From NCBI GenBank assembly GCA_947462335.1, contig OX381713.1:22808381-22872380 (forward strand): DNA of 64,000 nt, written 5' to 3'. Origin of the DNA: Harmothoe impar. Lineage: Eukaryota > Annelida > Polychaeta > Phyllodocida > Polynoidae. Shown here piece after piece: positions 27,301 to 54,200 of this stretch (position 1 is the first letter of the stretch; every line of letters begins with the position of its first letter). The position numbers and the translations under genes are program-made. The notes under the pieces are model-generated. The model did no database searches. It was not told the DNA's origin and was given only the letters and a program-made list of their open reading frames with translations.

Positions 27301-30300
27301 ATACAGTTCGCTGGATGCTTTGAAAGAAACAAATGCAATGTGACGGAGGAATTTTCTCATGTCACTTAGGTCATTGAAGGTATGGTCATCAATGCCTACA
27401 CAGGCCCAATTCATAGATATGTACATCAATTCAGCATAAGAAAGTGCCCTTGGTTCTCTACCTCGGGTGAATCTCTTTAAATCAAACCTCTTTCTTGCCT
27501 TAGAAATTCGGTCTGAAGAATTGTCTCTACCTTCATGTTTTATGTCGAATAGTCTTGGGGTGCTGGTCCTCGGATCTGGCGTGCCTTCTCTTGAAGAAGG
27601 CGGCGTCTTGACCTTCTTTTCACGTGACCGAGGCCGATGTCCCCCAACGATTCTTGACCGGATTTTCTCCTCCAGGGCCGCTACCTTCGCCTGCTCCTCC
27701 TGGTCCGCGTCTAGCGCCTCCAGGTACTCGATGTATTCAGCACGGCTGGCGAATTTCCCCTCATCATGGATGGCTGCAAGGCTCTTGTTGGCCTCCTCGT
27801 CCTCCAGTGGGTCCTCCTTCGGGACCTCCTTCACTTCAGGTTTCAGTCTTGAAGATCTCCTGGGTGGTAATGCTCTGTGAGCTGGATCCACCTCCTCCTT
27901 ACAGTTTTTACCCCGTGGGGCCGCATGGTCCTTGCCGCAGGCAAAACACCAGGCAGACGACATTTTGACGTCCTGTGGAATCCACTAATACACGTGGAAT
28001 GCCTAATAATCCTTAGGAATCCTTTATATTTCAAGGAAAATGACAGTTGAAAAGCGCTAGCCTACACATGTAGAGCTCTGAGGAAGCGTCCTCTCCGCGC
28101 AAAGTTTTGAATTCAACTGTGTTGTGTGCAGCGGCGTCCTTAGCGACCACCAGCCTGCCCCAGGTGGGCGCATTATGAACTACCACGACCCCTGCGTCAG
28201 CGCGTCCTATATAAGGGGGCGTGGTCACCTACACTCGGCAATATACACATATAACTGCTAGGGCACCTATATAGACAATATAAAAGCCCTCAGAGCAATG
28301 ACACATTTGTCTGTTACTTTTCAGTCTTTGTTGAGCCTTATTAGTTCTTGATGCATCCTCCTTAATTTCTTAACATTGCAGGCATCCCTACGGCTATTGA
28401 GGTATCCTATGGGTACTTCCTGGCAGGTGGTACCCTATCTGGGAGTCTACTCTCCGAGGAGAGTTGTGCCAGCGCGTGTGCTGCTAATGACTCGTGCACG
28501 ACAGCGAGTTTTAACATTGTCAACAATGATTGTTACCTACATGAGGCACGCACGGGTTGCCTGACCAGGGTCCCACAGACAGGCACCATCACCAGGAGAT
28601 ACAAGGACTGTAAGTGTATTGTAGCTACACTAGGTCGAAGGCTTTATCAACCTGACTCAAAGACCCTGTTACTGTGCAGCAACTGCACTTGTAATAGCAA
28701 CCATTTTGTCTATAGCTATTCCATGTATATGTACTAGTCTCAACAATGTCAAATTATTTTTAGCATTTAAATTAATTGAGCCAATTTGTTGAGGCATGTG
28801 AATTTTTTACAATTCAACTTTGTCAAATACTTTGTTGATATTTATAGATTTAGGTCTCGCTAGATGAAATGTTGATGAATATAGATGGTTTTTTTCGTTA
28901 AGTGTACATCCGTTTGTTTCTTCAGTAACATGTATATTGCTTAACAAAGTAGTATAACATCTTTATTATAATTATAACTTTTCTCACTGTTACTATAACA
29001 AGCTACTGTGACATTTACTGTTGCAGGTAATGCTGAGCCTGCACGTGTCTATGGTAAGTTTTATAGAGTTTTCAGATGAATCATATCATAGTTATTGCTT
29101 CTGTTTTGGTTGTGCATAGATACACCAATATGGTAACACAGAAAAAACAACTAAATGAAAATCTTTGGGAAGAACATACACATACTTACACATACTTTTT
29201 ACACATACTTTTTTTATTCAGTGGATGGGACATCAGATAACTTACATTTGGTTTGTGCTCTCAGATATTACCAGTGGTGCTCTGCTGACATCTCAGGAGT
29301 CACTTGGTACGATCCACTCCATTGGTCAGTCCCTACAGACCTGTTTAGACAGCTGTAAACTGCCCTGCACGGCCGTTAACTTCAGGTAGGTAACCAGAGG
29401 TGCAGCTTATGCTCACTATTATACCTGCTATAGTATAGAGCTGTAGTTTAAGTTCCTTATGTTTATAGCTGCAGTTCATGTTTAATTGATTTGCTTGATA
29501 CCAAAGTTTGAACAGCTGCATTTAGGTTCACTTTTTTATGCCCAATTCTATGGTGCTGCAGTTTAAGTTTACATTTTTATACCCAAGTCTTTAAAGCTGC
29601 AGCCTAAGTTTATTATGTGATACCCAAGCCTGCAGAGCTGCAGTTTAAGTTAGCTATGTGGTAAACATCTCTATGGATCTGCAGTTTAACTTCATTATTT
29701 GATACTCAGCTCTATAGAGCTTTAGCTTAAGTTCACCACTTGATAACTATGTCTAGAGGTAGAGTTTTAAGTTTACTATTTTGAGACCGAAATCTATATA
29801 GCAGAACTTGAAGTTTGTTATTTGATACCCAGATCTACAGAGCTGCAGTGTAATTTTTACCATTTCATCCACAGGTCTATAGAGCTGCAGTTTAATGAAT
29901 GCTGGCACCTGACAGGGGAGACAGAGGGCTGTTACAGCGCCACTGCACGACCAGGCTTTATGGTTTACAGACTTAACAACTGTAGTAGGTGTTCTAATAT
30001 TATAGTTTTGATAAACTTTCTTTTTCAAAACGAAAATGATCAACCAACTAGTATAGACATTAAACTTTAATTTGATTAAGCATATTATGATATATTACTT
30101 CCCTTATGGCTCTAATCAGCCAAAGTTATATAGTAAATGTATGGGTTTAATCGGCCGGAGTTCCCCGGTGGACGGTGGCCATAAATGATGAAGTATGATT
30201 ATAATGATTTTAGACTACTCAATTAAATGTTTCCTCACAAATAATTTATAAACACATTTCTCATTCCTTTCAGCTAATCCATATCAATTTGCGGGTAAGT

Positions 30301-51200: not shown

Positions 51201-54200
51201 GACATTTCCACATTAATCCAACATTAATTAAGTGTGCATTCTCACCTGATGATCCTGACCCTTGTCCTGTCCCTTGTCCTGTGCCTCCTGTAGACGTGGG
51301 GGGAGTGGTAGTGAGTGTAGCTGCCACGAACCTCACAGACACCTGGATCACAAGGTAAGTAGAATTAGGCTGCTGTGCCTCCTTTTTATCATTTACAGTG
51401 GGGCTATCACCAAGAGGGCGAGCCTCATTATGTTGTTAGCCCATTTAGGCCATGAGAGTGCCGCTTTAATTTAAAAGACGTGTATAGATAGTGGAAGCCT
51501 CAGTTATAGATAGAGCGTGTCTAAAACCTATAGTAAAAACTCTGAAATTGCTTGGTGATTCAAATATACTTATTGTGCTCAGTCTATACGAAAAGGTTTC
51601 CGCCTTACAGGACATTTGGTCCTGCAGATTTGTTATTCTGCAGGCCTGGCTAAATGTTTGCAGGCCCGGATACACAGAGGAATTGATTGTATATAGAAAT
51701 TTAGTATAAAGCTACAATTTATACGTAGGAAGTGATGATGGATAGAGGTTACCGATATTCAAATCATTTTGATAATTACAATTTGTATAATTTTGGGTAC
51801 CTTTCTACACAATATTCAGGTTTTCTAGTTTACTCTCTAGAAACCTTAATAATGGTCTGATTTATAAGCCATAAAAATTGACATGTAGATTTGGATCATA
51901 GCCAGCCATTGGGGCCGGTAGACATAGACTTTCTCCCGGACCAGCAGGCTTTTAGCCGTCTAAAGCTGGTGGGCGGCAGGTTTTTGTATAGACTGTGTTC
52001 TCATCTGAAATCAATTTAAACATAACCCTCGGACATATTCATTAGCTATGTGTACCAACCCTGAATCCTGTGCCAACATCTGAGTAGTCGGAGGTGAACC
52101 TCAGGTAGAGTTTGTTGGAGGTGGACTGTTGGACAGGGGGTAGGAGGGCTCCACAGACTGACGTCATGAGGGGGGAGTTGGAGCCGCGGCCATTGTAGAT
52201 CTTCAAACTGTCATACTGACAACCATCAGAGTGTTCAATGTCAAACGCCTCAAAGGTCAGCTGGACGTTCTGCAATAAGAGAAGGGTATGATTATTAAGA
52301 CATTTGGTTTTGATAATTTAATTTTGAAATTAGGATGTGGATACAACATACTTGATATTCTATTAAAGTTAAAATGGCAAATCGAGGGTCGATATGCAAA
52401 GTCCTGTTTACTTCCTTTAGAATTTAAGCACTATTTCCTATGTGATGTTGTGGTCGTATTTCGAAACGTTCATGCCAATACCTTGTGGAAAATCTCATTA
52501 ATTTTTTTTACATATAATGTATCAAATTGGTAAAGTTATCCCCCGTGGGCCCTGGATGTTACTGATAATGTACTCACCATGCCTTATGCTTTATGGTGCC
52601 TGGATGCTACTGATAATGTACTCACCATGCCTTATGGTGCCTAGATGCTACTGATAATGTTCTCACCATGCCTCATGGTGCCTGGATGCTAATGATAATG
52701 TCCTCACCATGCCTTGTGGTGCCTGGATTGCTACTGATAATGTTCTCACCATGCCTTATAGTGCCTGGATGCTAATGATAATGTCCTCACCATGCCTTGT
52801 GGTGCCTGGATGCTACTGATAATGTACTCGCCATGCCTTGTGGTGCCTGGATGCTACTGATAATGTACTCGCCATGCCTTGTGGTGCCTGGATGCTACTG
52901 ATAATGTACTCACCATGCCTTGTGGTGCCTGGATGCTACTGATAATGTTCTCACCATGCCTTATGGTGCCTGGCCTGGATGCTACTGATAATGTTCTCAC
53001 CATGCCTTATGGTGCCTAGATGCTACTGATAATGTTCTCACCATGCCTTATGGTGCCTGTATGTTACGGATAATGTATTCACCATGCCTTATGGTGCCTG
53101 GATGCTACTGATAATGTTCTCACCATGCCTTATGGTGCCTGGATGCTACTGATAATGACGATTGTACTCACCATGCCTTGTGGTGCCTGGATGCGCCACT
53201 TGCAGACGTTATTGACTGGGTACTCGGCGGGGTACCCAGGAGTGGTCAGCACTGTCTCTGAATTCACTACCATGACCCCATTACCACATCTAGCAGGTGT
53301 TTGTCGCTTCTGTCTTGATCTCTGCAAGTAGATAGAATATTTACACAAGGATTAATTATTACCAAATGCTGTCCTCGGCTTTGCAGGTACAATTATGGAA
53401 TATTCGTAAAAGGATTAGTTAGGCAAAAAAAAGTTTGTTTTAGGTCACCCGACTGACCCTATCAAAACAGGGCCGACCCTAAGTTTTTTTTATGCAAATT
53501 TGAAGAAATTGTCATATTTTTCCCCTCTTCTGGTCAATTTGAGGGTCTTCGGAAAGGCTGGATAGTACTTTCATGTTTTAAAAAGAAAATCCGACCTACC
53601 GACCCTACATTCTCTTGCCATGTTACCTGAAACATGCCCTTTTTTGGCCTTGGTACCACATTATATTAGTCTCGATCAAAGTCCAGTTAAATGACATGCC
53701 TTTCTCTAAAAAATGGTTGAAATAATTTGCAATGTATATTTGGGACAATGTTTTATATAGTCATTATACATAACATATATACATGTGTGATCTATGTGTG
53801 GCCTGTCTGCTGATTATTCTACTAGCGACACAGCCGAAAGTATCATCATACCGATGTACATAGAGCTAGAATAGTAATGATAGATAGACCGAGATGTTAC
53901 ACTGTGTTGTTATATACGTACCACAGAACCCTTTATCAATCGGAACAAGTCACTGCTGTCTTCATTCTTTTTGTCTGCAGGGCTCCTGAAATATTCGATA
54001 GCATCTTTGTAAATGACAGATGTATAACATTATGAAATGTTATGGATATTAATTAATTCAAGTAATGCCTGGCTTTGAATCTGTCGGCATATCTGCTGAT
54101 ATGCCTAGTTATGGCTACCTGCTTATAAGTTATAGTAATGGGCGAGATAACACAATACTCTCAAGGATTGAAACTAAAATGTATGCTGAATCTTCAGCTT

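What the first reader, a model, noticed from the sequence alone, without database searches (positions are those of the whole stretch)
29400..53172. Minisatellites repeatedly grow out of exon-intron junctions in two unrelated genes
Within 24 kb, at least four arrays contain a true splice junction as one of their units: PAN exon-8 acceptor (29400-29884), exon-10 acceptor (30598-30980), exon-22 donor (36633-37545), and the protease CUB1 donor on the other strand (52560-53172). A two-unit case sits at exon 20 (35541). Both donors and acceptors are involved, the units are unrelated in sequence, and lengths differ (41-88 bp). This points to a process acting at splice sites rather than one spreading repeat. 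I recall junction-spanning minisatellites being described in amphioxus (called mirages, at the Adh locus), which also supports the organism guess; that recollection should be verified. The splicing machinery faces 10-20 decoy sites per intron.
Basis: partly seen in the sequence, partly recalled or inferred. Interest (0 to 1): 0.88.

Follow-up and report, generated by a model that had tools for sequence, protein, structure and literature searches.

The report
Minisatellites growing from worm splice junctions
In a marine scale worm, short DNA pieces that straddle exon-intron borders have repeatedly been copied in tandem into long arrays, something known from amphioxus, and one such array appears to have become an intron.

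Summary
Four arrays and one two-copy case contain a real splice junction as their exon-proximal copy, in two unrelated genes. The organism is not amphioxus: COX1 and seven matching chromosome lengths identify the scale worm Harmothoe impar, an annelid. Junction-spanning arrays ('mirages') are described from amphioxus, so the kind is known; my literature searches showed none in an annelid.

They recur in an unrelated family: 5 of 59 ubiquitin-protease junctions, 3 if paralogs are merged. Paralogs 96-97% alike carry different arrays at the same junctions. Of 12 strong arrays in the two samples 8 cross a junction, of 14 weak repeats none (P = 0.0003; 6 of 12 and P = 0.004 by repeat-finder edges alone). 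Arrays from evenly spaced genome stretches are not enriched in splice-like motifs, so the motif alone is not the seed.

One array fills about 480 of 489 nt of an intron inside a PAN domain; the gene's 12 other PAN domains lack an intron there, suggesting an array-born intron. RNA use, alleles and genome-wide frequency are untested.

The parts
29386..29874 (+). Intron 6 of the PAN gene, inside PAN domain 4, phase 2; made of 41-bp units from 29395 to its acceptor
   Evidence: Gene model; unit scan; period of 41 in the self-comparison; the two ends of the intron align
29395..29905 (+). 41-bp array whose last copy is the start of exon 7 (AG|GTCTATAGAGCTGCAG)
   Evidence: TRF 29514-29651; 8 copies
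30598..31003 (+). 66-bp array whose truncated last copy is the start of exon 9
   Evidence: TRF 30602-30975; 6 copies
35538..35668 (+). Two-copy case at the exon 19 acceptor: extra copy 35538-35575, true copy 35617-35668
   Evidence: Unit scan
36628..37535 (+). 44-bp array whose first copy is the end of exon 21 and its donor
   Evidence: TRF 36634-37431; 20 copies
52556..53201 (-). 41-bp array whose first copy is the end of protease exon 3 (CUB1) and its donor
   Evidence: TRF 52586-53194; 15 copies
42886..43249 (-). Two 186-bp copies starting 14 bp inside the protease intron after exon 15; near a junction but not crossing it
   Evidence: TRF; distance
23210..23286 (+). Relic: two diverged copies of the exon 7 acceptor unit, away from the gene's exon 7
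   Evidence: Sequence; BLAST of the unit hits this kilobase
21088..39853 (+). PAN-domain gene, 26 exons modelled, 13 PAN domains; ends of the gene not determined
   Evidence: Pfam PAN hits in 5 of 6 exon ORFs sent, 2 above the curated cut-off
42552..54302 (-). Serine protease gene with four CUB domains, 16 exons modelled
   Evidence: Pfam CUB and trypsin

Best explanation
These are mirages in an annelid. Segments of about 20-90 bp that straddle an exon-intron border are duplicated in tandem on the chromosome and then grow, shrink and diverge like other minisatellites. The extra copies lie on the intron side of the exon-proximal site, so if that site is used they leave with the intron and cost little. 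The copies keep exon and intron sequence contiguous, so they came from DNA (or unspliced RNA), not from spliced mRNA. Shown: the anatomy, recurrence in unrelated genes, different arrays in close paralogs, and the bias of strong arrays to exon edges in the two samples. Inferred: near-neutrality, use of the exon-proximal site, and the cause of the bias, for which my best guess is instability of transcribed exon edges plus selection against arrays lying wholly in exons. In PAN domain 4 the array is the intron: a stretch with AGGT was probably duplicated, its first AG|GT becoming the donor and its last the acceptor (inferred).
For: Window: 5 junctions of 80. Ubiquitin-protease family, searched only to see whether a genome was held: 5 of 59 called junctions in 21 of 28 fetched loci. 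Paralogs L003/L004 (exon identity 1021 of 1052) have a single decayed duplication and a 20-bp x 4.6 array at the same acceptor; L037/L038 (363 of 379) have 3 and at least 9 copies of the same donor. Strong arrays (TRF score 120 or more): 8 of 12 cross a junction and 11 of 12 cross or lie within 50 bp; weak repeats 0 of 14 and 2 of 14; Fisher P 0.0003 and 0.0002. Splice motifs are not in excess in 83 arrays from 17 evenly spaced stretches: donors 1 observed, 3.5 expected; acceptors 3 and 6.2. Four CUB domains share the intron at the CUB1 donor and PAN modules share phase-1 introns, so those introns are older than their arrays. Intron 6: unique place among 13 PAN domains; 24 of 24 PAN hits outside the gene cover the place, 23 without stops, though only 5 have E of 1e-3 or better; one such exon read in full has no intron there; only intron of 40 with AG|GT at both ends.
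Against: Per base, repeat similarity is commoner inside introns (11-15% of 1500 positions) than at junctions (2-3 of 80). Counting by TRF edges alone lowers crossing to 6 of 12 (P 0.004) and near to 10 of 12 (P 0.001). Window alone: P 0.048; ubiquitin proteases alone: 0.019, or 0.044 with a paralog dropped. The score cut of 120 was set after seeing the scores, my exon ends in the protease family have no RNA support, and the further loci were fetched after mirages had been seen in L003 and L004, of whose gene L037 and L038 are parts. AG|GT at both ends has a chance of about 4.5% for a given intron from the counts, and two of 13 PAN domains have some internal intron. The exonic end before the intron 6 donor is not shown to be part of the repeat.
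Confidence: 0.72

Rival explanations
1. Coincidence: this genome is full of minisatellites and some overlap junctions by chance.
For: 17 evenly spaced 10-kb stretches hold 83 arrays, 47 of them strong, 27.6 strong arrays per 100 kb. The per-base test shows no excess at junctions. The window was picked for this feature.
Against: Uniform seeding expects 1.1 of 5 in the window against 4 seen; strong and weak repeats differ in position; the same junction bears different arrays in paralogs.
Confidence: 0.12
2. The splice-site sequence itself (for example AGGTAAGT) is a hot spot for DNA duplication, transcribed or not.
For: Arrays involve both donors and acceptors, and intron 6 has AG|GT at both ends.
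Against: Units of 83 arrays from evenly spaced stretches carry no more donor- or acceptor-like motifs than shuffled units.
Confidence: 0.05
3. The extra splice sites are selected, for redundancy or for regulated splicing.
For: Many decoys score as high as the true site: 11 of 14 strong ones at exon 21, 3 of 3 in L039, 3 of 3 in the protease.
Against: Splice columns are not consistently better conserved than the rest: 0.815 against 0.741 at exon 21, 0.877 against 0.928 in the protease. Paralogs differ in copy number. The exon 9 array has no strong decoy.
Confidence: 0.06
4. Intron 6 is an old intron whose other sequence was lost, so that only the array is left; no intron was born.
For: Arrays at other junctions are clearly younger than their introns, and units in intron 6 are diverged (75% matches in TRF), so its history is blurred.
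Against: Only 9 nt of the intron lie outside the array, against 303, 361 and 286 nt in the other three array introns; no other PAN domain of the gene has an intron at this place.
Confidence: 0.35

Closest known systems
Amphioxus 'mirages' (Adh3, globins BflGb6 and BflGb9, troponin C, PGBD5)
   Same: Minisatellite-like tandem copies spanning an exon-intron boundary, at donors and acceptors, with splice signals in many copies; unit 10-72 bp in Adh3 and 150-160 bp in the globins; a role in intron gain was proposed (passages of PMC3087553; of PMC3902484)
   Different: Here an annelid. There normal splicing was supported by RT-PCR and somatic or haplotype length differences were seen; neither was tested here
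Intron gain by tandem duplication of an AGGT-containing segment (potato RdRp case)
   Same: New intron flanked by AG|GT from duplicated sequence; the duplication crosses an intron-exon boundary in potato (PMC4974935, abstract)
   Different: Intron 6 holds about a dozen diverged copies instead of one duplication; no intron-lacking orthologue was available
Human internal tandem repeats that change gene structure in segmental duplications
   Same: Minisatellite expansion associated with new introns through cryptic splice sites (PMC2812944, passages)
   Different: Those repeats are studied mostly within exons of young human paralogs; most of ours straddle existing junctions

Membership tests
Mirage (junction-spanning minisatellite) | Tandem copies span an exon-intron boundary | tested here: met
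   Four arrays and one two-copy case in the window; 5 of 59 junctions in the ubiquitin-protease loci
Mirage (junction-spanning minisatellite) | Many, not all, copies carry the splice signal | tested here: met
   Strong decoys 14, 3, 2, 0 in the window arrays; 3, 1, 8 and 3 in L039, L037, L038 and L004
Mirage (junction-spanning minisatellite) | Regular mRNA splicing is not disturbed | not testable with these tools
   No transcripts held; RNA-seq exists
Mirage (junction-spanning minisatellite) | Length instability between alleles or cells | tested here: inconclusive
   Paralogs differ in copy number; alleles and tissues were not compared
Intron gain by tandem duplication | Intron absent from homologous positions | tested here: met
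   Absent from the 12 other PAN domains of the gene and from one paralogous exon read in full
Intron gain by tandem duplication | AG|GT at both ends of the new intron | tested here: met
   Intron 6 only, 1 of 40; about 4.5% by chance for one given intron
Intron gain by tandem duplication | Intron sequence derives from a duplicated exonic segment | tested here: inconclusive
   Units match the start of exon 7 and fill the intron; a match to the end of exon 6 is not shown
Intron gain by tandem duplication | Orthologue without the intron in a relative | not tested
   No genome of a relative was held for this species

The most novel reading that the evidence does not exclude
In this annelid transcribed exon edges are a true hot spot of tandem duplication, coupled to transcription or splicing and not to the DNA motif; the hot spot arose independently of amphioxus or is ancient and overlooked; and it is a live source of new introns, at least one of 40 introns in these two genes being an array.
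Probability: 0.3. Interest if true: 0.85.

Novelty: new member of a known kind. Interest (0 to 1): 0.62.

Why it matters
In the papers seen here mirages are reported from amphioxus only. The same anatomy in an annelid, at roughly 5-8% of the junctions examined, makes the question general: are exon edges unstable DNA, and do the arrays feed intron gain? Harmothoe impar has a long-read assembly, an alternate haplotype and RNA-seq, so both can be tested directly. Splice-site predictors also face real exon ends beside several equally strong copies.

Tried and rejected
The per-base test of repeat similarity at junctions gave 2-3 of 80 junctions against 11-15% of intron positions and 0 of 800 exon positions. 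Taken alone it argues against enrichment; long arrays dominate the intron figure, so I went on to count arrays by seed and edge. GC-driven seeding was considered: the 47 strong genomic arrays are GC-richer than their flanks (0.504 against 0.428), while the eight junction arrays average about 0.41, near the introns of the two genes (0.368) and well below the exons (0.537), so it explains little. An automatic split of the 41-bp units found only 4 anchors; units were then read by alignment and by eye. Similarity between the two ends of introns put intron 6 second of 40, behind PAN intron 16, so it shows that the array fills the intron but does not single it out. The repeats near 3500-5050 and 12718-12953 were read and show no junction that I could recognise. 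Identifying the organism by the protease and by a ubiquitin protease failed. A whole-genome search for the exon 21 unit did not complete, so 'private' is tested only among 51 held sequences.

Rows dropped or added by hand: 7 of 28 ubiquitin-protease loci gave no junctions to the count: L001, L006 and L008 (no confident junction), L036 (its acceptor scores 3.2, below every training acceptor), L040 and L041 (near-identical copies, unclear structure), L047 (copy of L046). L036's array (score 172; 19 bp from that uncertain acceptor) was added to the strong set by hand; without it the figures are 10 of 11 near and 8 of 11 crossing. A weak repeat in L001 was left out of the 14. The repeat at 39860 was counted as near by hand, since the donor of the last modelled exon is not in the list. 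The arrays at 29514 and 30602 were counted as crossing by unit alignment, not by TRF edges. Repeats made of two letters and periods under 15 were filtered out. One of the 59 positions (L044, 1484) is off by a base. The extra copies at exon 19 and in L003 are not TRF arrays and are not among the 12.
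Full report
What is there. Tandem Repeats Finder gives 41 rows for the window. I modelled two genes by hand: a PAN-domain gene on the + strand (26 exons, 21088-39853) and a four-CUB serine protease on the - strand (16 exons, 54302-42552). 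Both join into open frames with GT/AG ends. Pfam supports the domains: PAN in 5 of 6 PAN-exon reading frames sent, 2 above the curated cut-off, plus CUB and trypsin. Aligning each junction unit along its array shows that the exon-proximal copy is the real exon end: 8 copies at the exon 7 acceptor, 6 at the exon 9 acceptor, 20 at the exon 21 donor, 15 at the protease exon 3 donor and 2 at the exon 19 acceptor. Ten array units hit nothing among the 51 sequences held except their own locus, paralogs and a relic at 23210-23286, so within that limit this is not one spreading repeat.

The organism. The window lies in a genome of 1.51 Gb in 736 contigs. Its mitochondrial COX1 is 98% identical to a COX1 cluster labelled Phyllodocida and 93% to Branchipolynoe. 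Seven contig lengths (124.10, 111.32, 93.07, 87.89, 87.48, 85.95 and 84.46 Mb) equal chromosomes 1 to 7 of Harmothoe impar wpHarImpa5.1 in the genome note PMC10541532 (passages). The amphioxus guess is wrong.

A second sample. The ubiquitin-protease family was searched only to see whether a genome was held; it gave 82 exon hits and 8 loci. After seeing mirages in two of these I fetched the next 20 stretches in order of E-value, 500 bases on each side: 28 loci, 63.1 kb in all. L039 has a 32-bp x 4.1 array starting in a donor. L037 and its paralog L038 have a 68-bp array starting in a donor, with a 154-bp higher-order repeat in L038. L004 has a 20-bp x 4.6 array ending in an acceptor; its paralog L003 has one decayed duplication of the same acceptor. 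By position and profile range L037 and L004 are probably the two ends of one intron, and L038 and L003 the same in the paralog, so only L039 is a wholly separate gene. Of 59 junctions that I called in 21 loci 5 are mirages, 3 after merging paralogs.

Is it more than chance? Taking TRF score 120 as strong, the two samples hold 12 strong arrays: 8 cross a junction (two of them, at 29875 and 30981, by unit alignment), 3 lie 14, 19 and 37 bp inside an intron (42886, L036, L033; the acceptor in L036 is uncertain), and 1 lies in a 3' UTR. Of 14 weak repeats none crosses and 2 lie within 50 bp. Fisher P is 0.0003 for crossing and 0.0002 for near; with a paralog dropped 0.0007 and 0.0002, for the window alone 0.048 and 0.048, for the ubiquitin proteases alone 0.019 for crossing and 0.044 with the paralog dropped; by TRF edges alone 6 of 12 (0.004) and 10 of 12 (0.001). 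The cut of 120 was set after seeing the scores. The stretches are cut at 500 bases, which favours arrays near exons; the weak repeats serve as internal control. The simple per-base test goes the other way.

What it is not. In 17 evenly spaced 10-kb stretches there are 83 arrays, 47 strong, and their units carry fewer strong splice motifs than shuffled units. So a splice motif does not by itself seed arrays. In the two long donor arrays the splice columns are not consistently better conserved than the rest, so selection for the decoys is not shown. Exon and intron sequence stay contiguous in the copies, so spliced mRNA was not the template.

An array that is an intron. Of 13 PAN domains aligned, 11 are encoded by one exon. 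PAN12 is split by a phase-0 intron nearer its start, without an array that TRF finds. PAN4 is split by a phase-2 intron of 489 nt, in which the 41-bp units run from the tenth base to the acceptor (the more diverged units by eye). The other three array introns keep 303, 361 and 286 nt outside the array. All 24 PAN hits outside the gene cover the corresponding place, 23 without stops, but only 5 have E of 1e-3 or better. One of them, a weak hit (E 0.9) 26 Mb away, was read in full and is a PAN exon without an intron there. Intron 6 is the only one of 40 with AG|GT at both ends, as the widely cited duplication model predicts (PMC4974935, abstract), though this has a chance of about 4.5% for a given intron. 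An old intron trimmed to its array remains possible. By contrast the CUB1 donor intron recurs in all four CUB domains and the phase-1 introns recur between the PAN modules, so there the arrays are younger than the introns.

Known or new. Junction-spanning minisatellites were called 'mirages' in amphioxus Adh3; globin, troponin C and PGBD5 cases followed, and intron gain from them was proposed (passages of PMC3087553, and PMC3902484; the original Adh paper was not read). Human minisatellite expansions can also go with new introns (PMC2812944, passages). The searches list no report from an annelid; only named annelids. The earthworm metallothionein paper listed there has minisatellites inside an intron, and the passages read do not place them at junctions. 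The library holds only openly licensed papers, so this is weak evidence of absence.

Verdict. Real, recurrent, biased to exon edges in the samples seen, of a known kind, in a new phylum as far as I can tell, with one probable array-born intron. The cause of the bias is not established.

Noticed in passing
23290-28280: A retroelement with reverse transcriptase and tyrosine-recombinase (phage integrase) reading frames on the - strand sits in PAN intron 3; DIRS-like by recall. A short intron stretch is duplicated on its two sides (near 23140 and 28285, by eye).
   Followed up: partly
L049 (G000:C466): A second mitochondrial COX1, very unlike the scale worm's, in another contig: probably a co-sequenced parasite or contaminant. 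It looks flatworm-like from memory only.
   Followed up: no
window 4555-5054: 16-bp arrays (CCGGTCAAAGACGGCA and its complement) lie in inverted orientation about 400 bp apart, just after a reading frame that looks like an Ig domain by eye.
   Followed up: no
window 38417-38778: PAN domain 12 also has an internal intron (phase 0), at another place than PAN4's and without a TRF array: a second candidate for intron gain in the same gene.
   Followed up: partly
L003 2495-2583 and L004 2494-2642: Array in the 3' UTR starting about ten bases after the stop codon in both paralogs, with different copy numbers; its unit contains AGGT.
   Followed up: no
L026 and L019: Two of the 17 evenly spaced stretches are crowded with minisatellites (18 and 7 arrays in 10 kb).
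   Followed up: no
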